Assembly: GCF_000820765.1 (NCBI RefSeq)
Contig: NZ_CCYH01000004.1
Span: forward strand, 1 to 64,000
Length of the DNA stretch: 64,000 bases
Direction: 5' to 3'
From: Candidatus Soleaferrea massiliensis AP7
Lineage (GTDB): Bacteria > Bacillota > Clostridia > Oscillospirales > Ruminococcaceae
The notes beneath the pieces are model-generated. The model saw only the letters and a list, made by a program, of their open reading frames with translations. It was not told the DNA's origin and searched no databases. The position numbers and the translations under genes are program-made. Of the stretch, positions 12,702 through 32,660 are shown one piece after another (position 1 is the first letter of the stretch; every line of letters begins with the position of its first letter).

Positions 12702-13020
12702 GCCAAGATACCTTGGCGCGGTGGAGGCTATGCCGCTGTGACGCGGCGGTCTTATCGTATTTGCCAAGTGACACTTGGCTGTGTGGTCGTTACTCTTTTG
12801 CGCGGCCAAAAGAGTAACCAGAAAAGGCCGTTCAAGGGGGCCATGCACAGTGCCGCTCCTAGCCAGATGGCCCCCTTGAAAATCCCCTCTGATATCCCGT
12901 TATCTGCTACGGCCGCCTGCGGGCGGCATTTTGCTTTTGGCTGGGTGGTTGGGTATACCTAGCAGCGGACGCTTCCCCGGTTACTGGTTTCTCGCATAGT
13001 ACCCCAATACTTCGGCTGGT
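12702..13020 (+). repeat. Structured ~300-bp repeat, copy A
   Basis: The same sequence recurs inverted at 13910-14200 and 51071-51375. It contains nested inverted repeats: GCCAAGTG-A-CACTTGGC, GTTACTCTTTTG.../CCAAAAGAGTAAC, CAAGGGGGCCAT.../ATGGCCCCCTTG and a GCCGCC/GGCGGC hairpin, and ends with AGCAGCGGACGCTTCCCCGG. An open frame runs through it, but its sequence follows the palindromes and has no ribosome binding site. It looks like an extragenic palindromic or miniature mobile element rather than a gene. Confidence 0.85.
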
Positions 13021-13909: not shown

Positions 13910-14200
13910 AGCCAAGGTATTGGGGTACCGCAGGTACAACCTGTAACCGGGGAAGCGTCCGCTGCTAGGTATGCCCAACCACCCTGCCAAAAACAAGAAG
14001 CCGCCCGCAGGCGGCCGAAGGGGAAAGCGGGATATCAGAGGGGATTTTCAAGGGGGCCATCTTGCCAGGAGCGGCACAGTGTATGGCCCCCTTGAACGGC
14101 CTTTCTTGGTTACTTCTTTGGCCGCGCAAAGAAGTAACGACCACACAGCCAAGTGTCACTTGGCAAACAAAGAAAAACCGCTGTGCCACAGCGGAGTAAT
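13910..14200 (-). repeat. Structured ~300-bp repeat, copy B (inverted)
   Basis: Reverse complement of copy A, with the same internal hairpins; the end near 14200 is more decayed. Copies A and B bracket the Spo0E-like/XRE cassette as long inverted repeats. Confidence 0.85.
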
Positions 14201-14289
14201 AGCCATGTGATACTTAGTAAATAAAATGATATGATAAAAAGGGGAGCCTGTCGAATGGGCAAGCCAGATAAGGAAGTAATTATGTAGGG

Positions 14290-14334: not shown

Positions 14335-16032
14335 TTAGGCTACGAATTTGAAGCTCTGCGGGTTTTCCCGAATTTCTTCCATCATAGCCCGGATTTCTTT
14401 TTCGGTGGGAATATCGATCATTCCCACCGCTGTGAAGTAGATATCCACCTTGACGTGACAGTGACCGTCATACTTGTCGTTGTTGTGAACTTCAATGCGC
14501 TCGATCAGCGAGTTGACGAGGGTAGGCGTAAGCTCCTTGACGTCGGTGATCTCCCGCAGAGTACGGAGTACCAGCCGCAAATCCACCGCTTTCTGTTCGG
14601 CGTTCTGCAAGGTCTTCTGACCTTCGGCAACCTCCGCAGACAACGTTTTCTGCTCCTGCTCGTATTTTCGGAGCATTACCGCAAAGCGTTCATCGGAGAG
14701 AATACCCGAAGCGTTTTGCTCGAATACCCGTTCAATCAGTCGGTCGATTTCCGTGATCCGCTTTGTTCCATTATCCACCGCCTGCTGGAGCCTTTTGTAT
14801 TCTTTCTGCCGCATAGCGTTGTTCTTCTTTGCCAGCATATACAGAAACACCGGCTCGTAGCAGCGTACAAAGTCCGCAAGATTGCTGACCGCCTCCAACA
14901 CGATTCGCTCCAACACAACGTCCCGGATATAGTGGATTTGGCATTTTCCTCTGCCGGATTTGTAATTAGAACAGCGCCAAAACTCCTGATTGCGTCTCAG
15001 GCTTTTTGCGGCGCAGAAATGCAGCTTGGCTCCGCAGTCGGGACAGTAGACCAAGCCGGAAAAGAGACTTGCCCTGCCGGTCTTGGTGGGTCTGCGGCGG
15101 TTTTCCCGAAGCTCCTGCACCCGAAGCCACTGTTCTTCCGAGATAATCGGTTCCTGCATATCGGGGATGATCCGGTGTTCCTCCTTCGGCTTGTAGATCG
15201 TTTTATGCACCTTGTAGCTGACGGTGGTGGTCTTGAAGTTGACCGCGCAGCCGGTGTACTGCCGGTTTTCAAGAATACCTACAATCGTTTTCTGATCCCA
15301 CGCATAGGGATTTTGGTACTCTTTCCGTGCGTGGGTTCTGCCTACGGATTCATAGTAGGCGCTTGGGATCAGCACCTGCTCTTTCTCAAGCTGCCGTGCG
15401 ATCTGGGACGGGCCACGCCCCGCAAGGCAGAGCGCATAAATCCGTTTTACCATCTCTGCGGCGGGTTCGTCTATGACCCATTGCTTCTGGTCGCTCTCCG
15501 ACTTCTTGTATCCAAACGGTACGGTTGGGGATACCCGTTCGCCGTGTTCCGCTTTCGACTGCCATACCGCACGAATTTTCTTGGAAGTCTGCGCCGCATA
15601 CCACTCGTTGAAAATATTATGGAACGGCATCAATTCCGCACCGCTGTTCCGAAAGGTGTCCACATTTTCCTGAATGGCGATAAACCGAACGCCCAATGAA
15701 GGATAGCGGATTTCAAGGTACTGCCCAACCTCCAGATAATTCCTGCCGAAGCGTGAAAGGTCTTTTACGACCACGGTAGAAACCTCGCCATTCTCAATCA
15801 TTGCCTCCATCCGCTTAAATCCTTCCCGCTCAAATGTTGTACCGGAAATACCATCGTCCACGAAAATTTGCGGGTTTGCCAGTCCGTTCTGACGGGCATA
15901 TGAAAGCAGGATGTCCTTTTGGTGACTGATGGAATTCGACTCGGAATCCAGTCCATCGTCTACGGATAAGCGGCAGTAAAGCGCCGTAATTTTTTCTTCG
16001 GTTTGCCCGTTTGTTTTGTTTGCTGTTGTCAT
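14335..16032 (-). CDS. Large serine recombinase (TnpX-like)
   Basis: A 565-residue site-specific recombinase that excises and integrates the element. The resolvase domain has catalytic S23 (ALYCRLSVDD) and the DLSRFGRNYLEVG motif; a Recombinase domain, a zinc ribbon (CPDCGAKLHFC...CSNY...C) and a coiled-coil region with a C-terminal DUF4368-like part follow. ATG 16032 is chosen because GGAGAA precedes it; a TTG eight codons upstream lacks a site. In Tn4451 relatives TnpX alone suffices for both excision and insertion. Confidence 0.93.
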   Translation of the reverse strand: MTTANKTNGQTEEKITALYCRLSVDDGLDSESNSISHQKDILLSYARQNGLANPQIFVDDGISGTTFEREGFKRMEAMIENGEVSTVVVKDLSRFGRNYLEVGQYLEIRYPSLGVRFIAIQENVDTFRNSGAELMPFHNIFNEWYAAQTSKKIRAVWQSKAEHGERVSPTVPFGYKKSESDQKQWVIDEPAAEMVKRIYALCLAGRGPSQIARQLEKEQVLIPSAYYESVGRTHARKEYQNPYAWDQKTIVGILENRQYTGCAVNFKTTTVSYKVHKTIYKPKEEHRIIPDMQEPIISEEQWLRVQELRENRRRPTKTGRASLFSGLVYCPDCGAKLHFCAAKSLRRNQEFWRCSNYKSGRGKCQIHYIRDVVLERIVLEAVSNLADFVRCYEPVFLYMLAKKNNAMRQKEYKRLQQAVDNGTKRITEIDRLIERVFEQNASGILSDERFAVMLRKYEQEQKTLSAEVAEGQKTLQNAEQKAVDLRLVLRTLREITDVKELTPTLVNSLIERIEVHNNDKYDGHCHVKVDIYFTAVGMIDIPTEKEIRAMMEEIRENPQSFKFVA

Positions 16033-16118
16033 TCTGAAAATTCTCCTTTCCGACAACCGGGCATTGCAAAGGCATTATCATTTTACAATACCCGGCTGTC
16101 CTTTTCCAATGTGTGAAA

Positions 16119-16405: not shown

Positions 16406-17266
16406 TTACCTTTCGTCACGGCTTCTCTGCCGAATGAGAAATTTGCGGTAATGCTCGCAGGCTTTGAGGACGAAATCCTCCGCCTGTTTCGGGTTGGCAT
16501 TGGGGACAAACTGCCTGATGCGCTCCATCGGCAGCTTGAACATCTCCCGCTGGTTCGCCTTTTCCTCCGTCATAATGTCCCGGAGGACAGGCGGCGAAAG
16601 CAGTCCCTCCCGGTCTGCCTTGTGCAGCCGGAACGCCTGCGAATAGGACGGGGTGCAGTCGTTCATCTCGCACTGCTCCAAAATCTCCCGCTGTGTCGCC
16701 TTATCCAGATAGGAAAGCTCCACGCCAACGGACAGCGCCATCTTGCCCTCATCCATTTTGTCGAGGAATTCAGGGATCAGGTGGGTTAGGCGGATATAGC
16801 GGCGTACTTGAGATTTGCTGTCATCGGACTGTTGAGCGATAATCTCCGCTGTTTCTAACTTCCGACCAACTTGGTCGGAAGTTAAATCTGAACGGTATCC
16901 CTGTCGGCTCATCGCATCCAGCTTCAACTTGTACGCAAACGCCTTTTCGGAGGGTAGGATATGCTCACGGTGGAGGTTGCTGTCCACAAGGAGGATGGCG
17001 GCGGCTTCTCGGTCGATAGCATAAATCAAGGCAGGAACCGTTTCCAGCCCTGCCTTCTTCGCCGCATACAGCCTGCGGTGTCCCGATATGACCTCATAGT
17101 GATCCGGTTGTCCGTCCATCGGTCGGACGAGCAGCGGAGAAAGGATTCCGTTTTGTCGGATGCTTTCCGTCAAGCTCTCCATTTCCTCGTTGTCCTGCAC
17201 TTTGTACGGATGCCCCTCAAAAGGGTATAATTGCTTCATAGATATATTTGTTTTTGTATTCTTCAT
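16406..17266 (-). CDS. ParB/Spo0J-like protein
   Basis: A 286-residue protein. Residues ~10-95 are a ParB N-terminal nuclease/CTPase-type domain (PFEGHPYKVQDNEEM, SGHRRLYAAKKAG), followed by a helix-turn-helix centre (AEIIAQQSDDSKSQVRRYIRLTHL). It overlaps the relaxase gene end by four bases. In such elements ParB-like proteins may aid maintenance or regulate replication; no parA is present. A 27-bp palindrome at 16857-16883 lies inside the coding region. Confidence 0.88.
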   Translation of the reverse strand: MKNTKTNISMKQLYPFEGHPYKVQDNEEMESLTESIRQNGILSPLLVRPMDGQPDHYEVISGHRRLYAAKKAGLETVPALIYAIDREAAAILLVDSNLHREHILPSEKAFAYKLKLDAMSRQGYRSDLTSDQVGRKLETAEIIAQQSDDSKSQVRRYIRLTHLIPEFLDKMDEGKMALSVGVELSYLDKATQREILEQCEMNDCTPSYSQAFRLHKADREGLLSPPVLRDIMTEEKANQREMFKLPMERIRQFVPNANPKQAEDFVLKACEHYRKFLIRQRSRDER

Positions 17267-18636
17267 CGTTCATGACCTCGTTCTTTCTTCATAATTAAAT
17301 TGTTGTGTTTCATTTCGACTTGCTGTTCTGCGTCAAGAAGCTCCTTGATCCTCGGAATATGCTCCTCAATGCGCTTGGCAATTTTTAATTCTTTGCGTAA
17401 AGGCGTGATCTGCCTTGTGAGTTCCTTTGCCTGTTCCTTCAACGCCGCACCTTCCTCCGGCGATTTTACCCGCCGCAGCTTCAGGCGCAGGGCGTAGCGC
17501 TTTTTCTCCAATGCAGCAATCCGGGCAGACAAATCTTCCTGAAACGACAAAAGCTCCTTTGGCGACTGGATGTTGTTGTCGCAAAGGAGCCTATATTCTT
17601 CCAGATATTGATCTAATTTCCGTACTTCTGCCCGCATCACCGGGGAAAGCGGGCGGTTTGGCTGCTGCTCAATGTTGCTGCCGGTACAGAGTTTTAAGAG
17701 TTCTATGAATAACTGAAACAGCAGCGTCACCATGTCCATCCGCTGCGCCTTTCGGAATTCATATTCAAAGGACAGCAGCGGCTTTCGTTTCCATACGGGA
17801 TATACGACCGCATACAGTTCGGGTTTGCGCTGATTATCGAGCAGTTTTTCCCGTATGCTCTCTCTGGAATACTGCTCTCCGAGACTGTCGATGCGGATGG
17901 CTCTCTGCCAACCGGTGGCGGTTACAGAAGGATGTTCATAGCGGAAATCCCGTTCCAAGCGGTAACCGAGGGATTTCAGATAGTATTCAAGACTCTTGTA
18001 GCTGGAACACTTCGAGAGCGCTTCATCCATATCTTTTTGCAGTTGTCCACGGTGGGTGAGTTTGCCGGACTTTTCAGCCCAGTACGCTCTTTTATCGCCG
18101 TAAAAGTGCGTGAACGGGATGACGGATTTCCCATGTTCTCTGCAAATGGCATCGGAGATTTTGCGAAGCTCGATGTGGTCACGGATATGGTTTTCAAACT
18201 TCCTGCCGGTCTTGAAGGATACCGAATTGACCACAAAATGATTATGAAGATTATCCGTGTTCAGATGGGTGGTGACAACGACCTCATATTCCTTGCCCCA
18301 CATCCGCCGTGCGGTTTCCACGCCGATTTTGTGCGCTTCCTCCGGTGTGATCTCGCCCGACGCAAAGCTCTGATACCCGTGATACGCCACATTGCCGCCG
18401 AGCTTGCCGTATCGCCGCTTGGTCGCCATCATGCAGCGGTACGCTCTCTGCTTCGGGCAGTTGATCCCCGATACATACATTGTCCGGTCGGTCTTCTGAC
18501 CGTTCTTCACATACCGCAGCGCCGCCCACAAATCTTCGTCTAAAAACCTTTTGTCGGTGGTCTTATCGGGATTCTCTGCGTAGTCGATGACCTCCTTCAA
18601 TCGGGATTTGACCGGCCAGAAGCCTGTTGACGCCAT
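17263..18636 (-). CDS. Relaxase/mobilization nuclease
   Basis: A 457-residue MobA/VirD2-like relaxase. The nuclease domain is N-terminal, with the histidine cluster HLNTDNLHNHFVVNSVSF that binds the metal and an upstream FASGEITPEEAHKIG helix; the C-terminal third is a long basic coiled coil. It nicks oriT and pilots the strand into a conjugative pore supplied by another element, since no type IV secretion genes are present. The start overlaps the mobC end. Confidence 0.92.
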   Translation of the reverse strand: MASTGFWPVKSRLKEVIDYAENPDKTTDKRFLDEDLWAALRYVKNGQKTDRTMYVSGINCPKQRAYRCMMATKRRYGKLGGNVAYHGYQSFASGEITPEEAHKIGVETARRMWGKEYEVVVTTHLNTDNLHNHFVVNSVSFKTGRKFENHIRDHIELRKISDAICREHGKSVIPFTHFYGDKRAYWAEKSGKLTHRGQLQKDMDEALSKCSSYKSLEYYLKSLGYRLERDFRYEHPSVTATGWQRAIRIDSLGEQYSRESIREKLLDNQRKPELYAVVYPVWKRKPLLSFEYEFRKAQRMDMVTLLFQLFIELLKLCTGSNIEQQPNRPLSPVMRAEVRKLDQYLEEYRLLCDNNIQSPKELLSFQEDLSARIAALEKKRYALRLKLRRVKSPEEGAALKEQAKELTRQITPLRKELKIAKRIEEHIPRIKELLDAEQQVEMKHNNLIMKKERGHER

Positions 18637-22272: not shown

Positions 22273-23133
22273 GTGGAGGAGTGGGAAGATGAATTTACGA
22301 TGTACCGTATCACCCCGGCTCCGCCGAGGGAAAGCGATTTGCAGAGATATATCGACCGATACCTTGCCGAAAAAGACAAGAAATACTTCGGTTGGTTTCT
22401 TCATTATTACGAGCGCATTATCAACGAAAAGGCTATGGGGATCGTGCAGGATTATGCGATGGCGGGGCATTTTTCCGACGTCAAGCAGGCGTATGCTATG
22501 GGAATGTGGGCTGCGCTGCAAACATACGACCCAAACCGCGGCGTTCCTTTTATCGTGTATAAGGAATACGCCGCCATGCGGGCGGTACACGACCACATCC
22601 GAACCATGCGCAACGGTCATACGGTGCCGACCGATGACGAATACCGAAGACTTCGCCGGGCTATGCGGCTGTATTGGGAATACGGCGAAAAGTCTGATCC
22701 TGCCACGATGGAAAAGATTGCAGCCGAGCTTGCAACCAGCGTGGAAAAAACGCTTGAAATTATAGAGGCCGGACTGCGCAGTACGCGGTTTGTGGAGTTT
22801 TACCGAACATACGCCGATGTGGACAGCGAGGAGGGTCAAGAGGAAATCGCATACGACAGTACATCCGAAACGGAAACGCTGTTCTTCCGGCTTGAACGGG
22901 CAAATGCAGTCATGGCGGCGTTTGAGAGCCTCGACTACCGGGAACGGGCAGTCGTTTCAGCGCACCTCGGATTCTGTATGGAGTGTTATTCCACGAAAGA
23001 TAAAGGAGAGCCGTTCATCGACATTGCCATTGACCACGCCTTATCCTCCCCCGATACAGCGGACAAGATTTACCGCAGAGCCTTGCGGAAAATGAAAGAG
23101 AATTTGGAAAAACAGGAACTTGATGAGGCGTAA
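22273..23133 (+). CDS. Sigma-70-like protein of the mobile element
   Basis: A 286-residue protein beginning at GTG 22273 behind GGAAGGAGG. A region-2-like part (ALQTYDPNRGVPFIVYKEYAAMRAVHDHIRTMR) and a region-4-like end (LDYRERAVVSAHLGF...IDIAIDHALSSPDTADKIYRRALRKMK) are separated by a region-3-like helix bundle. Such proteins in mobile elements probably direct transcription of element genes; no cognate promoter can be named here. Confidence 0.75.
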   Translation: MEEWEDEFTMYRITPAPPRESDLQRYIDRYLAEKDKKYFGWFLHYYERIINEKAMGIVQDYAMAGHFSDVKQAYAMGMWAALQTYDPNRGVPFIVYKEYAAMRAVHDHIRTMRNGHTVPTDDEYRRLRRAMRLYWEYGEKSDPATMEKIAAELATSVEKTLEIIEAGLRSTRFVEFYRTYADVDSEEGQEEIAYDSTSETETLFFRLERANAVMAAFESLDYRERAVVSAHLGFCMECYSTKDKGEPFIDIAIDHALSSPDTADKIYRRALRKMKENLEKQELDEA

Positions 23134-23309: not shown

Positions 23310-24152
23310 ATGGAAAGGAAAATCACAAACGAAGTCATGAAGCGTTTCAGAGAATATCTGCGAAGGGAGGAAAAAAGCAAAAACACCGTGGAAAAGTATA
23401 TGCGGGACACACTGGCCTTCACCGTATGGCTGGACGGCGCAGAGGTCACGAAGGACACGGCGGTGGCCTTCAAGCAGCAGCTTGTGGAGGCGGGCTACGC
23501 CGTGCGGAGCGTCAATTCCATACTGGCAAGCCTCAACAGCCTGTTTTCCTTCCTCGGCTGGACGGAGTGCAAGGTGAAAGCGCTGAAGCTCCAGCGGCAG
23601 GTTTACTGCCCCGAAGAAAAGGAACTGACCAAAGGCGAGTATGAGCGCCTGTGCCGGACGGCACAGAAAAAGCACAACAAAAGGCTCAACCTCATCCTGC
23701 AAACCCTCTGCGGCACGGGCATCCGGGTGAGCGAACTGCGATTTATCACGGTGGAAGCGGTCAAACGCGGCGAAGCGACCGTATCGCTCAAGGGCAAAAC
23801 CCGGACGGTATTTCTCGTAAAAGACCTGCAAAAGAAGCTGCTGCGCTATATCGCAGAGCAGAAGATCGAATCCGGCGCGGTTTTCGTCACCCGCACGGGC
23901 AAGCCGATGAACCGCACCAATGTCTGGCGAGAGATGAAAGCGCTGTGCAAGGAAGCAAATGTCAACCCCGATAAGGTGTTCCCGCACAATCTGCGCCACC
24001 TGTTCGCACGGGTGTTCTACGGGATCGAGAAGGATATCGCCAAGCTGGCGGACATCCTCGGCCACAGCAGTATCGACACCACACGCATTTATATCGTCTC
24101 TACCGGCACGGAGCACCGCCGCCGCATGGAGAAAATGCGGCTGATCTTATAA
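23310..24152 (+). CDS. Tyrosine recombinase, probable DNA invertase of the adjacent switch
   Basis: A 280-residue XerC/D-like integrase. The N-terminal SAM-like domain binds the core site; catalytic residues are R139 (GTGIRVSEL), the HNLRH pair, the GHSS histidine and Y261 (TTRIYIVS). CGGAGG precedes the ATG. The gene ends 22 bp before the left 28-bp inverted repeat of a 263-bp segment, the usual place for a dedicated invertase of the FimB/Tsr kind. The element already has its own TnpX-type integrase, so inversion rather than integration is the likelier task; it could also resolve dimers. Confidence 0.92.
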   Translation: MERKITNEVMKRFREYLRREEKSKNTVEKYMRDTLAFTVWLDGAEVTKDTAVAFKQQLVEAGYAVRSVNSILASLNSLFSFLGWTECKVKALKLQRQVYCPEEKELTKGEYERLCRTAQKKHNKRLNLILQTLCGTGIRVSELRFITVEAVKRGEATVSLKGKTRTVFLVKDLQKKLLRYIAEQKIESGAVFVTRTGKPMNRTNVWREMKALCKEANVNPDKVFPHNLRHLFARVFYGIEKDIAKLADILGHSSIDTTRIYIVSTGTEHRRRMEKMRLIL

Positions 24153-24174
24153 AAAACGCCGCCGAAACCCGACA

Positions 24175-24202
24175 GCGACATAATCCGTATTATGTTGCAG
24201 AT
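24175..24202 (+). repeat. Left 28-bp inverted repeat of the promoter switch (IRL)
   Basis: Exact reverse complement of 24466-24493. The repeat is itself nearly palindromic around ACATAATCCGTATTATGT, the form expected of a tyrosine recombinase crossover core with two inverted binding arms. Confidence 0.93.
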
Positions 24203-24243
24203 ATGGGAAAAGGGTATAGCTATCCCACCCTGTAACCGTACAT

Positions 24244-24272
24244 AGTTTAGCACATTTTTCGATACTTGTCAA
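24244..24272 (-). promoter_or_regulatory. Invertible promoter
   Basis: On the minus strand TTGACA (24267-24272), a 17-bp spacer and TAAACT (24244-24249). This is close to the sigma-A consensus. In the sequenced state it transcribes across IRL into the 3' end of the recombinase gene in antisense. Confidence 0.85.
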
Positions 24273-24332
24273 TATGCCAGACTCGAAAAAGCATGAAAAG
24301 TAGAAAAAATTTTCAAAATGGACATGAGAAAT

Positions 24333-24383
24333 AAGCCTCTCTCGTCCTTCATTTTTTTGAAATGGAGGGAGGCTTGGTTTTTT
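24333..24383 (+). terminator. Terminator inside the invertible segment
   Basis: AAGCCTC.CTC.TCC pairs with GGA.GGAGGCTT around an A/T-rich loop, followed by GGTTTTTT. In the OFF orientation it stops read-through from the recombinase gene into the operon, tightening the OFF state. Confidence 0.7.
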
Positions 24384-24465
24384 GCGCCCATTTTCCATTG
24401 TAAAACGCCTGTTTTCTTGAATCAGACGCTGACCGCCGATTTCCCGCAGGTACTTTTATCCTGCG

Positions 24466-24493
24466 ATCTGCAACATAATACGGATTATGTCGC
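24466..24493 (-). repeat. Right 28-bp inverted repeat of the promoter switch (IRR)
   Basis: Exact reverse complement of IRL; matching stops abruptly on both sides. It lies in the would-be leader of the SipW gene, 18 bp before AAGGAGG. Confidence 0.93.
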
Positions 24494-24530
24494 ATTGTGC
24501 GGCAGGCAAAGAAGGAGGGGCTTCTATCCA

Positions 24531-25229
24531 TTGGAATCGGAACAGATGATAAGCAAAACCGGCGCTGATCCACGGTACAGAGAGCCTGCTCACAGGCGAA
24601 AACAGCGATTATTCAGTATCCCCAATATCATCGGGATCATTCTCTGCGTTCTGATGCTCCCCGGATTTCTCATTTCCATGACGCTGTTTATCGGCTCATT
24701 GATCCATCCGGGCGTCCCGCCAAGCTGCTTTGGCTACACGCCGCTGATGGTGCAGTCGGGCAGTATGTCTCCTCTGTTTGACGAGGACGACCTTGTGCTG
24801 ATTCAGAACAGCGCCGATGATGCACTTTATGGAATAGGCGATATTATCTGCTTTCAAAGCGGAGACGCCTATGTGACCCACCGGATCAAGGAAATCACGG
24901 CGGACGAGAACGGGAACGCCGTTTATACCACGCAGGGCGACGCCAACAACACGCCGGACAAAGATGCGGTGCGCCCGGATCAGATCCTCGGCGTTTACAA
25001 AACGCATTTTAAGGGCATGGGCAGGGCGCTTCTGTTTATCCAAACGCCAGTCGGCATGATCGTCTGCGTGATGCTGCCCATCTTCCTTGTATTCCTGCTT
25101 TTCACCGTGCCGCCTCGGATTGCGGCTCGCAAAAAGCGGAAACACATGACTGCCCGCCGTATTCCGAGAGATTTCACGGATGGAAACGGTATGGGCAGCA
25201 CCCCGGAAGGGCGCAATGAAATTCGGTAA
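24531..25229 (+). CDS. sipW: SipW-type signal peptidase, first gene of the fibre operon
   Basis: An S26B (ER/archaeal type) signal peptidase with a Ser-His pair: serine in VQSGSMSPLFDEDDLVLI, histidine in DAYVTHRIKEI, and the conserved GDANNTPDKDAV. A membrane helix precedes the catalytic part and another (VGMIVCVMLPIFLVFLLFTV) follows, then a basic tail. The start is uncertain: TTG 24531 is 12 nt from AAGGAGG, whereas ATG 24546 is 27 nt away; the open frame extends upstream through the switch but without a usable start site. In Bacillus, SipW processes TasA and TapA; here the substrates are probably the following SipW-type signal proteins. Confidence 0.9.
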   Translation: MESEQMISKTGADPRYREPAHRRKQRLFSIPNIIGIILCVLMLPGFLISMTLFIGSLIHPGVPPSCFGYTPLMVQSGSMSPLFDEDDLVLIQNSADDALYGIGDIICFQSGDAYVTHRIKEITADENGNAVYTTQGDANNTPDKDAVRPDQILGVYKTHFKGMGRALLFIQTPVGMIVCVMLPIFLVFLLFTVPPRIAARKKRKHMTARRIPRDFTDGNGMGSTPEGRNEIR

Positions 25230-25294
25230 TAACCAGGTCGGCCACACGGCTTCGGGGATTACATATATCAAAAATTTTACAGGAGGTCTTACAA

Positions 25295-25897
25295 ATGGCT
25301 AAGACAAAAAACAATCGTTTTCTCAAAGTCGCCGGTCTGATGCTGGGCGTCACCATGCTCGCCACCTGTGTTCTCTCTGGGACTATGGCAAAGTACACCT
25401 CCACCGGCACCGCTAACTCCGTTACTGCAAATGCCGGTAAGTGGAGCATTACTGTTGACGGAGAGGAATTGGAAGAAACCATGAATCTCAGCATTGCCGA
25501 TATGACAATCACCGCTGATGAAGCTGTTGCCGGTGGCACTGCGTATGCTGGCACGGCTCCTGTTCCGGGCACTTACGGCTATAAGGCCATCGAAATCAAG
25601 AACGAGAGCGTTGTTGACGCAGAGGTTTCCGTTTCGGCTACCGGCGCCACCAATACTGACTCTTCGATTACCGTTGGTTTCGTGAAGTCCATTCCGGATG
25701 GCGACGCTATCACGAGCGAAGATCTGAGCAGCACGCCTTTGAAGATCAATGCCGGTCAGACCGAAACCATCTACATCGCTTACAACTGGGAATTTGAAGG
25801 ACAGGATGATGCTGACACGACTCTCGGTAAAGACACGGGCGCTATCAACTTCGGTTCCATCACTGTTACCGCAACTCAGGCTCAACTGGCTCACTAA
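25295..25897 (+). CDS. TasA/CalY-like SipW-dependent secreted protein
   Basis: A 200-residue protein with a SipW-class signal peptide (FLKVAGLMLGVTMLATCVLSG then TMAKYTSTGTA) followed by a Thr/Ala-rich beta-sandwich region typical of camelysin/TasA proteins (IEIKNESVVDAEVSVSATG). ACAGGAGG gives it the strongest ribosome binding site of the operon and a structured 3' region follows, so it is probably the major subunit. TasA-type proteins polymerize into extracellular fibres (family knowledge); polymerization here is inferred. Confidence 0.88.
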   Translation: MAKTKNNRFLKVAGLMLGVTMLATCVLSGTMAKYTSTGTANSVTANAGKWSITVDGEELEETMNLSIADMTITADEAVAGGTAYAGTAPVPGTYGYKAIEIKNESVVDAEVSVSATGATNTDSSITVGFVKSIPDGDAITSEDLSSTPLKINAGQTETIYIAYNWEFEGQDDADTTLGKDTGAINFGSITVTATQAQLAH

Positions 25898-26110
25898 GAT
25901 ATTCTCTCAACCGTAAGCAGACGGCCTCAGACTTGCCGCCTGTGGTTGACCCAACTATGGACGGACAGCCTTAGATGTGGCGCTGGGGCTGTCTGCTATG
26001 GTTGAACCAAGCATTTAAACCTTTAACGGTACGGCTTGCTGTGCGAAGCAGCCGGCAGGCCGTATCCTTAAGGGCTTAAATCAAGCAATCAAGGAAACGA
26101 GGAATGCAGT
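25898..26110 (+). promoter_or_regulatory. Structured intergenic region after the major subunit gene
   Basis: It contains several stem-loops, including GGACAGCC/GGCTGTCT and TACGGC.TGCTG/CAGC...GCCGTA, but no T-rich tail. Such structures usually stabilize or segment an operon mRNA so that the first product is made in excess; this role is inferred. Confidence 0.45.
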
Positions 26111-26851
26111 ATGGAAATATGTGAAAGTACAGAACGCAGAAACCGTCCCTTCTTTTCTTGCCTTGCCGCCTCCCTGTCGATCCTGCTGGGGCTGAGCGTC
26201 TTTCTCGCCTCTCCCCATGTGGGTACGGCAAAAGCCGACCCGGCTTCCGGGGACGAGGCGTTTTTGATTGTGCAGGATTCGGACGGAAAACGCTGGACGG
26301 AGCTTGACGGGCTGAATGTGTTTGCAAATGCGCAGTTCGACGGGAAGTCCATCGTCGTGCCCGGCAGCGAGGGTAATTACACCTTCACCGTGGAGAACAC
26401 CGCCAACTTCCCATTGAAGTACGAGATCAGCTTCGGGGAGGAAAACGTGGACGGTGTTCCGCTGGAGTTCCGACTGAAAAGTGAGGATGGGTATCTCACC
26501 GAGGACTGGACGAGTGCGCCCGAACTTGCCGAAATTGAGGAAGAACTTGCCATTGACTCGAAAGCCGGATACACGCTGGAATGGCGCTGGATATTGAACG
26601 GCGATGACGAGCATGACACGGCGCTGGGCAGAAAAGCCGCCGAAACAGAGGTGCCGTATGTTCTGAAAGTAAGCTACGCCGCCGAACAGAACGGCGAGGA
26701 GGTCAACCCGCCGCAGCCGGGAAACCCGGATTCCCCGCAGACCGGCGACGACAGCAATCTGCCGCTTTGGATCGCCCTGATGGTCTGCTCCGGCACGGCG
26801 CTGCTTCTCACGATGGTTTTGCGTCGCAGAGACGAAAATGAGGCGGAATAA
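26111..26851 (+). CDS. Surface protein with SPQTG sorting signal
   Basis: A 246-residue exported protein: signal helix (ASLSILLGLSVFLASPHVGTAKA), a beta-rich extracellular part resembling the CalY/TasA fold (YTFTVENTANFPLKYEISFG), a proline linker, then SPQTGDD, a membrane helix and RRRDE. The C-terminus is a sortase signal of the variant used by several Clostridia, so it may anchor the fibre to the wall, as TapA does functionally in Bacillus. No sortase gene is in the window. Confidence 0.82.
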   Translation: MEICESTERRNRPFFSCLAASLSILLGLSVFLASPHVGTAKADPASGDEAFLIVQDSDGKRWTELDGLNVFANAQFDGKSIVVPGSEGNYTFTVENTANFPLKYEISFGEENVDGVPLEFRLKSEDGYLTEDWTSAPELAEIEEELAIDSKAGYTLEWRWILNGDDEHDTALGRKAAETEVPYVLKVSYAAEQNGEEVNPPQPGNPDSPQTGDDSNLPLWIALMVCSGTALLLTMVLRRRDENEAE

Positions 26852-27365
26852 GGTGGCGGCAAGGTTTGGCCGGGCGGCTTCGGCCGTACTGGCGGCGCTG
26901 TTTCTCCTGATTGCGGCTCTGCTTTGTTACACGGCGGTCGCACGGGCGGCGGGAAATCCCCTCCCCACGGTTTTCGGCTGGGGCAACGCCGTGGTGCTGT
27001 CCGGCAGTATGGAGCCGGAACTTCCGGTAGGTTCGCTGCTTTTAATCCACCGGGAGGAAAGCTACGAAGTCGGAGAGATCGTCACCTATGAAGATGAAAA
27101 CGGGAGTCTTGTCACCCATCGGCTTGCGTCTTTGGCAAACGGAGAAGCAGTCACGAAGGGCGACGCAAACAACACGGAGGACGCCCCGTTTCCCGTATCG
27201 CAGATTTATGGAAAAGTACGGGCTGTGCTGCCCGGCGTCGGCGGCACGATCCTTTGGCTGAAGACGCCGCCGGGCATCTGCACGGTTCTGCTGATCGGAG
27301 CAGTCCTGCTCTTTGTTCCGGGAACTATCATTAGAAAGGTGGGCAAAACGCATGACAGATCATAA
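26838..27365 (+). CDS. Second SipW-type signal peptidase
   Basis: A 175-residue S26B peptidase with serine in VVLSGSMEPELPVGSLLLI, histidine in GSLVTHRLASL and GDANNTEDAPFPV, between two membrane helices. It overlaps the preceding gene by 14 bp and is close to the usual SipW length, unlike the longer first peptidase. Two such enzymes in one operon may split the substrates between them. Confidence 0.9.
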   Translation: MRRNKVAARFGRAASAVLAALFLLIAALLCYTAVARAAGNPLPTVFGWGNAVVLSGSMEPELPVGSLLLIHREESYEVGEIVTYEDENGSLVTHRLASLANGEAVTKGDANNTEDAPFPVSQIYGKVRAVLPGVGGTILWLKTPPGICTVLLIGAVLLFVPGTIIRKVGKTHDRS

Positions 27366-28212
27366 CGACAGACCGATGATCCTGTTGCCGAAGCCGGACA
27401 CGGTACAGCCGGTTCTTGGGTGGAGCTATCGGGCAAAGCATTTGAAAAAGCGCAGAGGGAGAAAACTGTTCCGGCTGGGCGTATCCTGCCTGTCCATGCT
27501 GGTAATCACGGCTCTGCTGTCGGTGGGCGGCACATTCTCGAAATATACCACATCCGGCGGCACGGAGGAGGCTCTTTCTATTCAAACGGGAACATTTGCC
27601 AGTTCTGGAGAAGATATTACGGACACTGTAAGAACCAACAAGATGACCTATGGGTTGGCCGACACGGATGTCGTTGTTGCGGCTTTTACGATTAGAAACA
27701 GCAAAGCCGGAAAGACCTCCGTCGTTGATTTGAATGTGGATGTGAATTTGATAGGATTGAGTGGTCAATATACGGCACAGGCGCAATTTAGTGGTAGCAC
27801 TCTTGAATTTCAGACCGAAGAAATGGCAAAGAATGCAAAGTTTGTTTCTGCACTGAAATCCTCACTGAAGGTAGGCACTCTTGAAGATGGTGTTTTTACT
27901 CCGCTGGAGCAACAACCAACACCGACTGCAATTACATATTCTGAGGATAATAGCCTTGAGAATCCCGAATATGGTATAATGCCTGCGGCATTTACTCCGT
28001 TTCCTTTTGTTGCGGATTGTAGCAACCATTGGAATAATGCCTTCACGATTCTCAGTACTGACAGCCGAACCTATGTTGGCATCATTATAATTGACACAAA
28101 CATTACAGATGTGGAATATGGCAAACTTACATATACAGGCCCGGATCTCCTGCTCAATGCTGGTAATCAAAATCTTGTAGTGACTGTCAATCAAGCTCGG
28201 CTGGGAGACTAA
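27352..28212 (+). CDS. SipW-signal secreted protein
   Basis: A 286-residue protein with an unusually long basic N-terminus before a SipW-type signal (FRLGVSCLSMLVITALLSVGGTFSKYTTSGG). The mature part is beta-rich (VVVAAFTIRNSKAGKTSVVDLNVDVNL) and ends in LVVTVNQARLGD, a common terminal strand of TasA-like domains. Start ATG 27352 has AAAGGTGG upstream and overlaps the second peptidase. It is likely a minor or tip subunit (inference). Codon use becomes more AT-rich from here on. Confidence 0.8.
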   Translation: MTDHNDRPMILLPKPDTVQPVLGWSYRAKHLKKRRGRKLFRLGVSCLSMLVITALLSVGGTFSKYTTSGGTEEALSIQTGTFASSGEDITDTVRTNKMTYGLADTDVVVAAFTIRNSKAGKTSVVDLNVDVNLIGLSGQYTAQAQFSGSTLEFQTEEMAKNAKFVSALKSSLKVGTLEDGVFTPLEQQPTPTAITYSEDNSLENPEYGIMPAAFTPFPFVADCSNHWNNAFTILSTDSRTYVGIIIIDTNITDVEYGKLTYTGPDLLLNAGNQNLVVTVNQARLGD

Positions 28213-28224
28213 GGAGGCGCTCAT

Positions 28225-28854
28225 ATGAAAAAGATATTTGAAAATCGAAAGATACTTTGTGTAGCTCCTTCCCTTCTGTTAATAGCAGTTTTATTAGTTC
28301 CTGTTAGCTTAACTGTGGCAAAATACAGCGAGCCGTATAGATACACGGCAAGTGTAACTATTACCGGCTTGAGAGCCGGTGATGAGCCGATATCCGGTGG
28401 TGATAATACCCCCGGTATCGTAGATGAAATGCCGAACACAGTCTATCAGGTGCAGCCCGGCGATACGCTTTCCGCTATTGCAGAAAAGTTCCACACAACC
28501 GTGGAGGCGTTGGCTGCGTACAACCAGTTAGACGACGCCAATGCGATCCAAGCCGGTATCATCCTGCGCATCCCTCCGGCAGGTTATGTTATTCCTGAGA
28601 CAGATGCAGATGAAACAGAAGAAACAAGTTCTTCGGAACCGGCGACAGAAACCGATACGACCGAAACGACATCACCTTCCGAGACTCCGAATTCCACAGA
28701 ACCGGATATTTCCGCTGATTCTGCTTCTTCCTCCGAGCCGACGCCGGAAAGCGAGCCGAGTACGGAGGCCGTTGAAACATCTGGTTCGGCTGAATCCGAA
28801 TCGTCTGACGGCGATGCTTCAGCGGAAGAAGTAACGAATGACGGGACGGAGTGA
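28225..28854 (+). CDS. SipW-signal LysM protein with Ser/Thr/Glu-rich tail
   Basis: A 209-residue protein. The signal segment (LLIAVLLVPVSLTVAKYSEP) is SipW-like and is followed by a beta strand motif, then a LysM domain at about residues 73-115 (YQVQPGDTLSAIAEKFHTTVEALAAYNQLDDANAI in part) that binds peptidoglycan, then ~85 residues of acidic Ser/Thr/Glu/Pro sequence. It offers a non-covalent wall attachment for the fibre, complementing the SPQTG protein. AAGGAGG precedes ATG. Confidence 0.85.
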   Translation: MKKIFENRKILCVAPSLLLIAVLLVPVSLTVAKYSEPYRYTASVTITGLRAGDEPISGGDNTPGIVDEMPNTVYQVQPGDTLSAIAEKFHTTVEALAAYNQLDDANAIQAGIILRIPPAGYVIPETDADETEETSSSEPATETDTTETTSPSETPNSTEPDISADSASSSEPTPESEPSTEAVETSGSAESESSDGDASAEEVTNDGTE

Positions 28855-29125
28855 ACAAAGGAAATTGGGAGTAGTGCTCTTTATAACAGGTCTGGCAGTA
28901 GGCGGGGCGGTTTCGTTCTTCCTTGCTGCGGCATTATCGGCACGGCGTGTTTCGCAATATGAGGTGATTACTGCAAAGCTGCGCCAACAGAATAAACGAC
29001 TTGCGGATTCCCTGCCGGAGAAAACCCTGAAAAGCATTAACGGTTCTGATCACTGCGTATGCTGCGGCGATCCGGTTCCAGAAGGCAATATGGTCTGCAC
29101 CAACTGCCTGAGAGAAAAGCTGTGA
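28838..29125 (+). CDS. Small membrane protein with zinc ribbon
   Basis: A 95-residue protein with one N-terminal membrane helix (LGVVLFITGLAVGGAVSFFLAAAL), a short coiled segment and a C-terminal CVCCGDPVPEGNMVCTNC ribbon. It overlaps the LysM gene by 17 bp and is the last gene before the terminator. Function is unknown; it may be an assembly or regulatory factor on the cytoplasmic side. Confidence 0.75.
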   Translation: MTGRSEQRKLGVVLFITGLAVGGAVSFFLAAALSARRVSQYEVITAKLRQQNKRLADSLPEKTLKSINGSDHCVCCGDPVPEGNMVCTNCLREKL

Positions 29126-29162: not shown

Positions 29163-29206
29163 GGCGGTACTCACTTTAGTGCGAAGGTGAGTACCGCATT
29201 TTTTGT
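29163..29206 (+). terminator. Terminator of the SipW operon
   Basis: GCGGTACTCAC and GTGAGTACCGC form a stem with a 10-12-nt loop, followed by ATTTTTTG. Confidence 0.9.
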
Positions 29207-29284: not shown

Positions 29285-29659
29285 TTATCTGTAAATCAGT
29301 TCCTTGTTGACGATCTCGGTCGCTCTGTTTCGGATGTTGTTCATCCGCCCGACCCACATCAGTTGATCCTGCGCTTTGAGTTCTTCCGTTACGCCCTCAC
29401 GCTCTGCCATCTGTTTTACCAGCCGAGAGAACATTTCCTCCGCCTGCCGGTCGATGTCGGCAAGATAGCAGTTCAGCTTACAGGCGGTGAGCAAATTGTA
29501 GTATAGAATGCGATGATGTTCTTTCAGATACCGCCTGTGTCGCTGCCCCCAAATGCCTATGGGCTGTTTCTCCTCGGCGGGCAATGTCAGGCAAGGCAGC
29601 AGGTAATCTCCATGTCGTTCGTATTTTCCGCCCATCTGCTCAAATAAACTCTTTTCCAT
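29285..29659 (-). CDS. tnpV: TnpV-family transposon protein
   Basis: A 124-residue helical protein with the family pattern IGIWGQRHRRYLKEHHRI, then LNCYLADIDRQAEEMF and MNNIRNRATEIV. TnpV is a constant accessory of Tn4451-type elements, of unknown function. Its position after the fibre operon marks the far end of the element. The start overlaps the end of the next upstream small gene. Confidence 0.88.
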   Translation of the reverse strand: MEKSLFEQMGGKYERHGDYLLPCLTLPAEEKQPIGIWGQRHRRYLKEHHRILYYNLLTACKLNCYLADIDRQAEEMFSRLVKQMAEREGVTEELKAQDQLMWVGRMNNIRNRATEIVNKELIYR

Positions 29660-29970: not shown

Positions 29971-30059
29971 TGCCTTTGCTAATGCCGATTCGGTTGATTA
30001 AACTGTTGGATTCAAATTACTGCCTTATCTGGCGTTTTCAAAACAGGCTCCCTTTTTTA

Positions 30060-32660
30060 TCATTCATGAACAACAAGCTTCTTCCCATCGTAATCCACAA
30101 CCAGCGCCGTACGCGGCTTGAGATCCGATGCGATGATCATCCGCGCGATCAGCGTCTCAACATGGCTCTGTACATAGCGCTTGAGCGGCCGCGCGCCGTA
30201 AACAGGATCATAGCCCTGGTCAACAATGAAATTCTTGGCCTTTTCGGTCAGCTCAACCTTGAGCTGCTTCTGATCCAGCCGCCGCTGCAGATCGGCCATC
30301 ACCAGATCGACAATCCGGTAAATCTCATCCCGCGTCAGCGGCTTGTAGAACACAATGTCGTCCAGCCTGTTTAAAAATTCCGGCCGAAATTGACTCTTGA
30401 GCAGGGAACTGACCTGCTCCTTCGCCTCATCGCTGATCTGTCCCTCCGAATCGATGCCCTCCAAAATAAACTGCGAACCGAGATTCGAGGTCAGAATGAT
30501 GATCGTGTTCTTGAAATCCACCGTGCGTCCCTGCGAATCGGTGATGCGCCCGTCGTCCAGCACCTGCAGAAGGATGTTGAACACATCCGGATGCGCCTTT
30601 TCAACCTCATCGAACAGCACCACGCTGTATGGGCGGCGGCGCACCGCTTCGGTCAGCTGTCCGCCCTCCTCGTAGCCGACATATCCCGGAGGCGCTCCAA
30701 TCAGCCGCGATACGCTGTACTTCTCCATATATTCCGTCATGTCAATGCGCACCATGTTGTGCTCGTCGTCGAACAGCGATTCGGCCAGCGCCTTCGCAAG
30801 CTCGGTTTTGCCGACGCCGGTCGGGCCTAAGAACAGAAACGATCCGATCGGACGGTTCGGGTCCTTGATGCCCGCACGGGAACGCAGAATCGCGTCGGTT
30901 ACCTTCTCGACCGCCTCATCCTGGCCGATCACGCGTTCATGCAGGATGTCTCCAAGCTTCAGCAGCTTTTCGCGTTCGCCCTCCATCAGCTTGGCGACCG
31001 GGATGCCGGTCCACCGGCCGACAATCCGCGCGATCTGCTCCTCCGTGACCCGGTCGCGCAGCAGCGTGTTCGCGCTCTGGTTGAGTTCGGCCAGCTTCTC
31101 TTCTTCCTCCAGCTCTTTGGTGAGCTGCGGCAGCCTGCCGTATTTCAGTTCAGCGGCGCGGTTGAGGTCATACTGCTGCTCGGCCTTCTCGATTTCGGCG
31201 TTGACCTGCTCAAGCTCCTCGCGCAGCTTCTGCACCTTGGAGATCGCGTCCTTCTCGTTCGCCCATTTGGCCTTCATCTCCTTGAACTGCTCGCGCTGCT
31301 CGGCCAGCTCCTTCTGGATCTCTTTGAGATGCTCCTTCGACAGCGTGTCGGTCTCCTTCTTGAGCGCCGCTTCCTCGATCTCATACTGCATGATCTTGCG
31401 GGAGATCTCATCCAGCTCGGTCGGCATCGAGTCCATTTCGGTGCGGACCATCGCGCACGCCTCGTCAACCAGGTCGATCGCATTATCCGGCAGGAACCGG
31501 TCGGAGATGTACCGGTGGGACAGCACCGCCGCCGCAATCAGCGCCTGATCCTGAATCTTGACGCCGTGAAACACCTCGTAGCGTTCCTTAAGCCCGCGCA
31601 GGATCGAGATGGAATCCTCCACCGTCGGCTCATCCACCATGACCGGCTGGAACCGGCGTTCCAAGGCCGCGTCCTTCTCGATATACTGATGATATTCGTC
31701 CAGCGTCGTCGCGCCGATGCAGTGCAGCTCGCCGCGCGCCAGCATCGGCTTGAGCAGGTTGCCGGCATCCATCGAGCCTTCGGTTTTACCCGCGCCGACA
31801 ATGGTATGCAGCTCGTCGATGAACAGGATAATGCGGCCCTCGCTCTTTTTGACCTCGTTTAAAACGGCCTTGAGCCGTTCCTCAAATTCGCCGCGGAACT
31901 TTGCGCCGGCAATCAGCGCGCCCATATCCAGGGAAAACAGCTTGCGGTCCTTGAGGTTATCCGGCACGTCGCCGCGTACAATCCTGCGGGCAAGCCCCTC
32001 GGCGATGGCGGTTTTGCCGACGCCCGGCTCGCCGATCAGCACCGGGTTGTTTTTGGTCTTCCTCGACAGGATGCGGATCACATTGCGGATTTCGCCGTCC
32101 CGTCCGATGACCGGGTCGAGCTTATGGCTGCGCGCCAGTTCCACCAGGTCCTGTCCGTATTTGGAGAGCGCGTCGTAGGTTTCCTCCGGTGTGTCGCTCG
32201 TCACCCGCGTATTGCCGCGCACGCTGGACAGCGCGGATAAAAAGCGGTTGGCGTCGATCGAAAAGCGCTTGAAGATTTCCCGCAGCTCATTGTTCGGATG
32301 GCCGATCAGGGAAAGCATGATGTGTTCCACCGAGATGTATTCATCCTTCATGCGCGCCGCCTGCTTTTCAGCGTCTGCCAGCACGGTGTCCACATCGCCC
32401 GAGATGTAGATCTTCCCGGCCTCACGGCCCGGGCCGCTGACCTGCGGCAGCTTGTTCACGGCTTCCTGCACCGCGGAAAGGACAGCGGATTCATCCACGT
32501 TCATCTTTTTGAGCAGCTGCGGGATCAGCCCGTTTTCCTGTGTCAGCAGCGCGGCCGCCAGATGCTGCTGTTCGATCTGCATATGGCCGTGCTCCAACGC
32601 GATATTCTGTGAAAGCTGGATGGCCTCCAGCGATTTTTGTGTGAATTTCTGTGTGTTCAT
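30060..32660 (-). CDS. clpB: ClpB protein disaggregase
   Basis: An 866-residue AAA+ unfoldase that rescues aggregated protein with DnaK. An N-terminal Clp repeat domain ([13 protein letters not shown]) is followed by NBD1 with Walker [10 protein letters not shown] and Walker B VLFIDELH-like [14 protein letters not shown], the coiled-coil M domain that separates ClpB from ClpA/ClpC, and NBD2 with [16 protein letters not shown] and a sensor region. TTAGGAGG precedes ATG 32660; an upstream in-frame ATG lacks a site. I see no CIRCE or CtsR box upstream. Confidence 0.96.

What the first reader, a model, noticed from the sequence alone, without database searches (positions are those of the whole stretch)
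24175..24493. Invertible promoter switch caught in the OFF state
Seen: perfect 28-bp inverted repeats (24175-24202, 24466-24493) enclose 263 bp that hold one near-consensus promoter, TTGACA-N17-TAAACT, on the minus strand. The repeat is itself near-palindromic and lies 22 bp after a complete tyrosine recombinase gene. Inverting the segment moves the promoter to ~24396-24424, pointing at the SipW operon with AAGGAGG 88 bp beyond. Known: fimS-type switches and gut 'invertron' promoters work this way. Inferred: this switch controls the operon and the sequenced cells are mostly OFF.
Basis: partly seen in the sequence, partly recalled or inferred. Interest (0 to 1): 0.95.

Follow-up and report, generated by a model that had tools for sequence, protein, structure and literature searches.

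The report
Portable self-flipping promoter on mobile element
A 319-base DNA segment bounded by perfect mirror-image repeats beside a recombinase gene carries one promoter-like site that points away from a cell-surface operon; flipping the segment would likely switch that operon on, and related segments in other bacteria lie in both directions next to very different genes.

Summary
In detail: perfect 28-bp inverted repeats, 22 bp after a tyrosine recombinase gene, enclose the only promoter-like site of the intergenic region, pointing away from a SipW-like signal-peptidase operon. Relatives support the interpretation. Of 88 recombinase loci with at least 450 bp of 3' DNA (window included), 79 carry two inverted copies of ACATAA-N6-TTATGT whose spacers match within one base (41 spacers in all); 9 do not, one of them (L026, truncated contig) with a direct pair. 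A promoter-like site at one fixed place occurs in 53 of 78 segments (shuffled mean 1.5). Segments lie in both orientations: 51 OFF, 11 ON of 62 clear. In one metagenome bin the recombinase contig and a cargo contig both stop exactly at the repeat edge, as a mixed population would give. Two terminator-like hairpins probably insulate the switch. Downstream cargo is almost unlinked from the recombinase tree, so this looks like a portable phase-variation cassette, here inside a mobilizable element. Inversion and expression are untested. A 2025 inverton survey probably contains relatives (group 139), but its motif could not be read.

The parts
23310..24152 (+). tyrosine recombinase (XerA/XerD-like), predicted invertase of this switch
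   Evidence: Pfam Phage_integrase 2.2e-28; R139 K163 H226 R229 H252 Y261 invariant in 105 of 105 aligned sequences, window included; catalytic role of these residues recalled
24157..24177 (-). terminator-like hairpin on the minus strand; predicted to stop the transcript of the OFF-facing promoter before the recombinase gene
   Evidence: -12.2 kcal/mol, z -3.8; comparable hairpin in 58 of 79 loci
24175..24202 (+). left 28-bp inverted repeat with site ACATAATCCGTATTATGT (24178-24195)
24203..24465 (.). 263-bp invertible interior
   Evidence: homologous interiors in both orientations among relatives
24244..24272 (-). promoter-like TTGACA-17-TAAACT with TG before the -10; would lie at 24396-24424 on the plus strand after inversion
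24331..24384 (+). terminator-like hairpin with T run inside the segment; predicted to block read-through from the recombinase into the operon in OFF
   Evidence: -22.4 kcal/mol, z -3.6; a hairpin with T run on either strand in 52 of 79 segments
24466..24493 (+). right 28-bp inverted repeat with site ACATAATACGGATTATGT (24473-24490)
24512..24518 (+). ribosome-binding-like AAGGAGG before the TTG start at 24531
   Evidence: L041 has an ATG start at about the matching place
24531..25229 (+). SipW-like signal peptidase I, first gene of the operon
   Evidence: TIGR02228 77 bits, cut-off 51.85
25295..25897 (+). secreted protein, called TasA-like from its place in the operon only
   Evidence: no Pfam or NCBIfam family; low-confidence fold
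26111..26851 (+). surface protein with SPQTG sorting-like tail
   Evidence: weak TIGR01167, E 0.026, below cut-off; motif seen by eye
26838..27365 (+). second SipW-like signal peptidase
   Evidence: TIGR02228 80.3 bits, cut-off 51.85
27352..28212 (+). second secreted SipW-operon protein
   Evidence: no family found
28225..28854 (+). LysM protein
   Evidence: PF01476 2e-14
28838..29125 (+). small protein, last operon gene
   Evidence: no family found
29164..29197 (+). hairpin with 11-bp stem and T run, likely operon terminator
   Evidence: read by eye in the sequence printed
14335..16056 (-). large serine recombinase of the carrying mobile element
   Evidence: Resolvase, Recombinase, Zn_ribbon_recom, DUF4368
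17263..18636 (-). relaxase of the mobile element
   Evidence: PF03432 1.8e-39
29285..29659 (-). TnpV
   Evidence: PF14198 7.3e-50

Best explanation
This is a 319-bp segment between perfect 28-bp inverted repeats that is predicted to be flipped by the tyrosine recombinase encoded 22 bp away, and it holds one promoter-like site that, in the assembled orientation, points away from a SipW-like surface-protein operon. Shown: repeats, promoter-like site, two terminator-like hairpins, and relatives with the segment in both orientations. Inferred: the recombinase exchanges strands within the spacer of each ACATAA-N6-TTATGT site and so inverts the interior. In OFF the promoter would make a short leftward RNA that ends at the hairpin 24177-24157, while the plus-strand hairpin 24331-24384 would block read-through from the recombinase gene. 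In ON the promoter would lie at 24396-24424 and transcribe the operon 24531-29125, which would make a phase-variable surface structure. Recombinase plus switch look like a portable cassette joined to different cargo in different hosts; here it rides on a mobilizable element (serine recombinase to TnpV, about 14.2-30.1 kb).
For: Perfect IR; exact site pair unique in the assembly. 79 of 88 loci with at least 450 bp 3' DNA (window included, duplicates dropped) have an inverted site pair with spacers matching within one base, with 41 distinct left spacers: the two copies agree within a locus although they differ between loci, as inversion requires. Promoter score of 10.5 or more at a fixed distance from the segment edge in 53 of 78; shuffled mean 1.5, maximum 5 in 100 runs. 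Orientation: 51 OFF and 11 ON of 62 clear calls; L083 and L090 are 78% identical over 176 bp in opposite orientation; the 11 ON rows need 11 changes on the recombinase tree, shuffled mean 10.3. L041 has the SipW cargo in ON. Contig ends: of 80 loci, 28 contigs end within 6 kb downstream and 12 of these within the first 350 bp (11 of the 12 after a site); upstream 38 end within 6 kb and 2 within 350 bp. L066 and L022 end exactly at the inner repeat edge, as partner contigs of the same genomes show; in the genome of L066 a cargo contig starts exactly at the other inner edge. Six catalytic-type residues invariant in 105 of 105. Hairpins.
Against: No reads were available, so inversion in this strain is not seen; the closest relatives (L036 94%, L037 88% recombinase identity) are also OFF. 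The -10 TAAACT matches 4 of 6. 9 of 88 loci lack a matched pair (L026, L028, L034, L035, L042, L052, L096, L110, L111); L026 has a direct pair 123 bp apart in a contig that ends soon after, while L028 and L110 have inverted repeats of other or degenerate sequence. 16 of 78 orientation calls are unclear, and 2 of 43 (L031, L115) disagree with homology. Contig breaks could also come from several related elements in one sample. Partner-contig searches for L061 and L027 (G171) found none, and the genome of L022 (G224) showed a more complex arrangement with three sites on the second contig.
Confidence: 0.9

Rival explanations
1. The repeats are attachment-type sites and the tyrosine recombinase moves DNA in or out rather than flipping it.
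For: Tyrosine recombinases often act as integrases (general knowledge); the gene lies in a mobile element; L018, L021 and L026 have direct site pairs in truncated contigs.
Against: The element has its own serine recombinase; sites are inverted in the 79 loci with a matched pair, and both orientations exist among relatives.
Confidence: 0.04
2. The switch is real in the family but locked OFF in this genome, so the operon is silent or uses another promoter.
For: The window and its two nearest relatives are all OFF; 11 of 62 clear loci are ON; no read evidence.
Against: Perfect 28-bp arms and an intact recombinase with the catalytic-type residues argue that the machinery is maintained; no plus-strand promoter-like site is present as assembled.
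Confidence: 0.15
3. The segment is a fixed terminator and regulatory region, and the inverted repeat is a protein-binding site only.
For: Stable hairpins are present.
Against: Locus-specific spacers that match between the two copies, and opposite orientations of homologous interiors, are not expected of a fixed region.
Confidence: 0.02

Closest known systems
Gut invertons with invertible promoters (PMC8748976 and others seen in a search listing only; the 2019 Science survey recalled, not held)
   Same: Short inverted repeats, promoter inside, recombinase, surface functions.
   Different: By title the main one listed concerns Bacteroidales; this one is in Clostridia with site ACATAA-N6-TTATGT, a recombinase gene at near-fixed distance, terminator-like hairpins, and exchangeable cargo.
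Inverton group 139 with invertase group 35, defined gut community hCom2 (PMC11892184; passages, sections 6 and 8 read)
   Same: 33 invertons, 32 of class Clostridia, nearly all with a nearby tyrosine recombinase; the two examples with coordinates span about 255 bp; reads show shifting orientations.
   Different: Its IR motif and cargo are in figures or supplements that were not read, so identity is likely but untested. The main text holds neither 'signal peptidase' nor 'conjugative'.
C. difficile cwpV and flagellar switches with RecV (PMC2784873, PMC5386303, PMC7446863; search listing only; PMC5903667 passages)
   Same: A tyrosine recombinase inverts a short segment before surface genes.
   Different: There the segment acts after the start of transcription (recalled; Rho is named in a listed title); here a promoter-like site lies inside the segment and the recombinase gene is adjacent.
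fimS/FimB/FimE of E. coli (recalled)
   Same: A promoter flips between short inverted repeats.
   Different: Different site and recombinase: the tyrosine-type DNA invertase models score 31.6 and 23 bits, cut-offs 221 and 222.

Membership tests
Invertible-promoter phase switch (inverton) | Inverted repeats around a promoter next to a gene start | tested here: met
Invertible-promoter phase switch (inverton) | Segment found in both orientations | tested here: met
   met among relatives; not seen for this very strain
Invertible-promoter phase switch (inverton) | Recombinase-dependent inversion | not testable with these tools
   adjacent intact recombinase gene only
Invertible-promoter phase switch (inverton) | Expression depends on orientation | not testable with these tools
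   no RNA data
hCom2 inverton group 139 / invertase group 35 | Shared IR motif and recombinase sequence group | not testable with these tools
Fim-type DNA invertase | Match to tyrosine-type DNA invertase models above cut-off | tested here: not met
   31.6 bits against 221, and 23 against 222
Tn4451-type mobilizable transposon | Large serine recombinase, TnpV and TnpW | tested here: met
   TnpW only just, 25.4 bits against 25; that these genes define Tn4451 is recalled
Tn4451-type mobilizable transposon | TnpZ relaxase and overall Tn4451 gene set | tested here: not met
   relaxase is MobA/VirD2-like PF03432; the TnpZ type is recalled; hence described only as Tn4451-like
Bacillus tapA-sipW-tasA operon | SipW of the Bacillus equivalog | tested here: not met
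   82.7 and 73.1 bits against 190; the signal peptidase I model TIGR02228 is met
Bacillus tapA-sipW-tasA operon | TasA fibre protein | tested here: inconclusive
   no family hit for the window's proteins; one relative (L037) matches TIGR04089 at 17 bits, cut-off 60; fold model pLDDT 62.6 with weak matches

The most novel reading that the evidence does not exclude
A cargo-agnostic phase-variation cassette of gut Clostridia: one recombinase and one insulated invertible promoter of about 250-320 bp that travel together, partly on mobilizable elements, and make whatever operon lands behind them phase-variable: surface fibres, adhesins, sensor kinases, SPFH operons, peptide synthetases, restriction-modification and other defence-like genes. 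Phase variation itself is the transferable trait.
Probability: 0.55. Interest if true: 0.75.

Novelty: new variant of a known kind. Interest (0 to 1): 0.62.

Why it matters
The invertible-promoter literature listed here is mostly about Bacteroidales. A single recombinase family with a readable site (ACATAA-N6-TTATGT) would predict phase variation across many gut Clostridia from sequence alone, including restriction-modification and surface operons. At least 7,994 protein clusters match the recombinase at E 1e-60 or better (7,999 candidates scored), so the site gives a direct genome-wide test, and public read data could decide which loci flip, when, and for what cargo.

Tried and rejected
Structure prediction of the TasA-like protein gave low confidence (pLDDT 62.6) and weak matches (best a PapG pilin domain, E 1e-3, TM 0.28 to the query); not used as evidence. 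A simple promoter scan of whole segments (66 minus, 16 plus, 4 undecided of 86, seven duplicates included) was noisy; replaced by the fixed-place score and by homology (the 478 of 482 consistent pairs include those that set the labels). The genus search covered one genome, the window's own, so no same-genus ON example. The own-genome paralogues of the recombinase are distant (31% and 33%). Ten paper searches listed no paper that I could see to treat a SipW operon under an invertible promoter or this cassette's layout and cargo exchange; several listings were capped, and the library lacks most subscription journals.

A first count of SPFH cargo (11) missed members by too strict a motif; the recount by sequence search is and replaces it. 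A first count of mobile-element hits (33 of 81) included one locus outside its denominator; one search gives 32 of 81.

Rows dropped: duplicates L007-L011, L014, L015 (same loci as L041, L038, L049, L057, L067, L091, L094) and L012 (same as L076); L053 (966-bp segment) from the promoter score; L045 and L080 from the tree because the translated span had a stop. The genome-contig scan kept the best 80 of 212 relatives. Site pairs were sought only 150-1000 bp apart. Pfam was run on 30 chosen cargo proteins of 27 loci, six of them cut to their first 1000 residues, not on all.

Full report
OBSERVATION. The arms 24175-24202 and 24466-24493 are perfect over 28 nt. The best promoter-like site, TTGACA-17-TAAACT with TG before the -10, is on the minus strand at 24272-24244. 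As assembled there is no plus-strand site of 9 of 12 or better between 24100 and 24545; after in-silico inversion there is exactly one, at 24396-24424. The genome assembly (3.1 Mb, 51 contigs) holds the exact site ACATAA-N6-TTATGT at these two places only, and the switch DNA matches nothing else in it apart from its own arms.

ANATOMY BEYOND THE FINDING. Two hairpins probably insulate the switch. A minus-strand hairpin followed by TTTTTT (24177-24157, -12.2 kcal/mol, z -3.8) lies between the recombinase stop and the left repeat, where it would end the transcript of the OFF-facing promoter; a comparable hairpin is found in 58 of 79 loci. A plus-strand hairpin with a T run (24331-24384, -22.4 kcal/mol, z -3.6) lies inside the segment and would keep recombinase transcripts out of the operon in OFF; a hairpin with T run, on one strand or the other, is found in 52 of 79 segments. 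Sequences and predicted folds are shown; termination is inferred, and no shuffled control was run for these hairpin counts in relatives.

RELATIVES. A scan of genome contigs with the recombinase gave 212 relatives, of which the best 80 were kept; six viral-collection loci and a family search (68 of 297 genomes at E 1e-60, own genome included) added more. Of 88 loci with at least 450 bp of 3' DNA (window included, duplicates dropped) 79 have two sites 150-1000 bp apart in inverted order with spacers that match within one base; 9 have no such pair, and one of these, L026, has a direct pair 123 bp apart in a contig that ends soon after. L018 and L021, too short for the count, also show direct pairs. 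The left spacers take 41 forms. A spacer that varies between loci but agrees between the two copies of a locus is what strand exchange by a tyrosine recombinase demands, so this is evidence for recombination and not only for conserved binding sites.

PROMOTER AND ORIENTATION. In 53 of 78 segments a promoter-like site scoring 10.5 or more lies 45-75 bp from one edge, against a mean of 1.5 and a maximum of 5 in 100 sets of shuffled interiors. By that site 62 segments have a clear direction: 51 OFF and 11 ON; 16 are unclear. Independently, alignments of the interiors find opposite orientations, for instance L083 and L090 (78% over 176 bp, inverted). Where both methods apply within the main homology group they agree in 41 of 43 cases; L031 and L115 disagree. 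On a tree of 77 recombinases the 11 ON loci need 11 changes, the highest number possible; shuffled labels need 10.3. Orientation thus shows no inheritance along this tree. Of the 11 SipW loci of the tree, L041 is ON, seven including the window are OFF and three unclear; L045 and L080, left out of the tree, are OFF.

MIXED POPULATIONS. Contigs break in the switch. Of 80 genome-contig loci, 28 contigs end within 6 kb downstream of the recombinase and 12 of these within the first 350 bp, 11 of them after a site; upstream, 38 end within 6 kb and 2 within 350 bp. L022, L027, L061 and L066 end 4-5 bases after the 18-base site. For L066 this is exactly the inner repeat edge: another contig of the same bin begins exactly at the inner edge of the right repeat, shares 27 bases with the first and runs into cargo, and the invertible segment is in neither contig. 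For L022 (G224) a second contig overlaps the first, shows the same edge, and carries the switch with three sites. The repeats are shorter than usual assembly word lengths (general knowledge), so such breaks are what both orientations in one sample would give. No partner contig was found for L061 and L027. One named strain, Subdoligranulum variabile TSDC17.2-1.1, has two such switches on two replicons, one promoter-like site facing the downstream side and one facing away. Of two other plasmid records looked at, Monoglobus has one exact site and a repeat, and Pusillibacter has an inverted repeat of another sequence.

CARGO. The SipW-like operon is one cargo of many: 11 of 72 tree loci with enough downstream DNA, plus L045 and L080. 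Fifteen relatives have an SPFH/Band 7 gene as the first gene after the switch, and L054 and L085 a more distant relative further down (Pfam checked on L038). Further cargo by Pfam includes a non-ribosomal peptide synthetase (L044), collagen-like and leucine-rich surface proteins (L056), GLUG and Listeria-Bacteroides repeat proteins, histidine kinases (L070, L073), polysaccharide synthesis (L079), a TIR protein (L085), type IIG-like restriction-modification pairs (L086, L116), a PLD-helicase (L100) and cohesin/dockerin proteins; 7 of the 30 proteins scanned had no family. On the recombinase tree the three cargo classes (SipW, SPFH, other) need 22 changes, against a shuffled mean of 24.7; 14 of 200 shuffles are as low, so cargo is nearly, though perhaps not fully, unlinked from the recombinase. 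This is the basis for calling it a portable cassette.

MOBILE ELEMENT. In the window the cassette lies between a large serine recombinase with TnpW, ParB, relaxase, NikA-like and actin-like genes on one side and TnpV on the other. Imperfect inverted repeats at 14226-14281 and 30015-30067 (80%), not matched elsewhere in the genome among the scored candidates, probably mark the ends. Of 81 relatives with at least 4 kb on one side, 32 have a hit to one of relaxase, ParB, ParM, serine recombinase or TnpV; the other 49 have none within the DNA held.

OPERON FUNCTION. Two signal peptidases pass the TIGR02228 cut-off; the secreted proteins match no family above a cut-off, and the fold model is too poor to use. 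That the operon builds a surface structure is inferred from the SipW-like peptidases, a sorting-like tail and a LysM protein.

WHAT IS KNOWN. Promoter inversion by a neighbouring recombinase is a known mechanism. A 2025 survey of a defined gut community (PMC11892184; passages and sections 6 and 8 read) reports inverton group 139, 33 invertons of which 32 are Clostridia, tied to tyrosine invertase group 35, with shifting orientations in reads and sizes near 255 bp in the two examples with coordinates. It is probably the same or an overlapping family, but its motif is not in the main text. The ten paper searches listed nothing that I could see on the SipW cargo, the insulated layout or the cargo exchange. 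I therefore rate it a new variant of a known kind.

VERDICT. What is shown is anatomy and comparative evidence; inversion in this strain, the share of OFF cells, and the effect on expression are untested.

Noticed in passing
window 14150-14199: A roughly 46-50-bp sequence with 54 further matches in the genome, 40 of 95 candidates scored; inverted 16-base matches also link 12760-12892 with about 14020-14167 (list cut).
   Followed up: partly
window 14226-14281 and 30015-30067: Imperfect 80% inverted repeats, likely ends of the mobile element; the right one touches the stop of the clpB-like gene.
   Followed up: partly
window 22273-23133: Sigma-70-like protein (below cut-offs) 176 bp before the recombinase gene; similar proteins start 1.9-2.2 kb before the recombinase end in L036, L037, L038, L040, L046, L062, L078 and L098.
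   Followed up: no
L017, L020, L047, L109, L115, L142: Three copies of the site instead of two, so more than one inversion, or a deletion between direct copies, would be possible.
   Followed up: no
L018, L021, L026: Two sites in direct orientation right after the recombinase in contigs that end soon after; no inverted partner in the contig.
   Followed up: no
L053: Inverted sites 966 bp apart instead of about 280, with the SipW cargo beyond.
   Followed up: no
L086 and L116, downstream of the switch: Type IIG-like restriction-modification genes behind the invertible segment; L086 is ON by promoter and homology, L116 by homology only.
   Followed up: partly
L016, L038, L040, L042, L043, L046, L049, L057, L058, L062, L074, L077, L081, L098, L113: SPFH/Band 7 gene as the first cargo gene after the switch.
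   Followed up: partly
window 3464-4690: GmrSD-type N-terminal domain with an HNH nuclease domain, outside the element.
   Followed up: no
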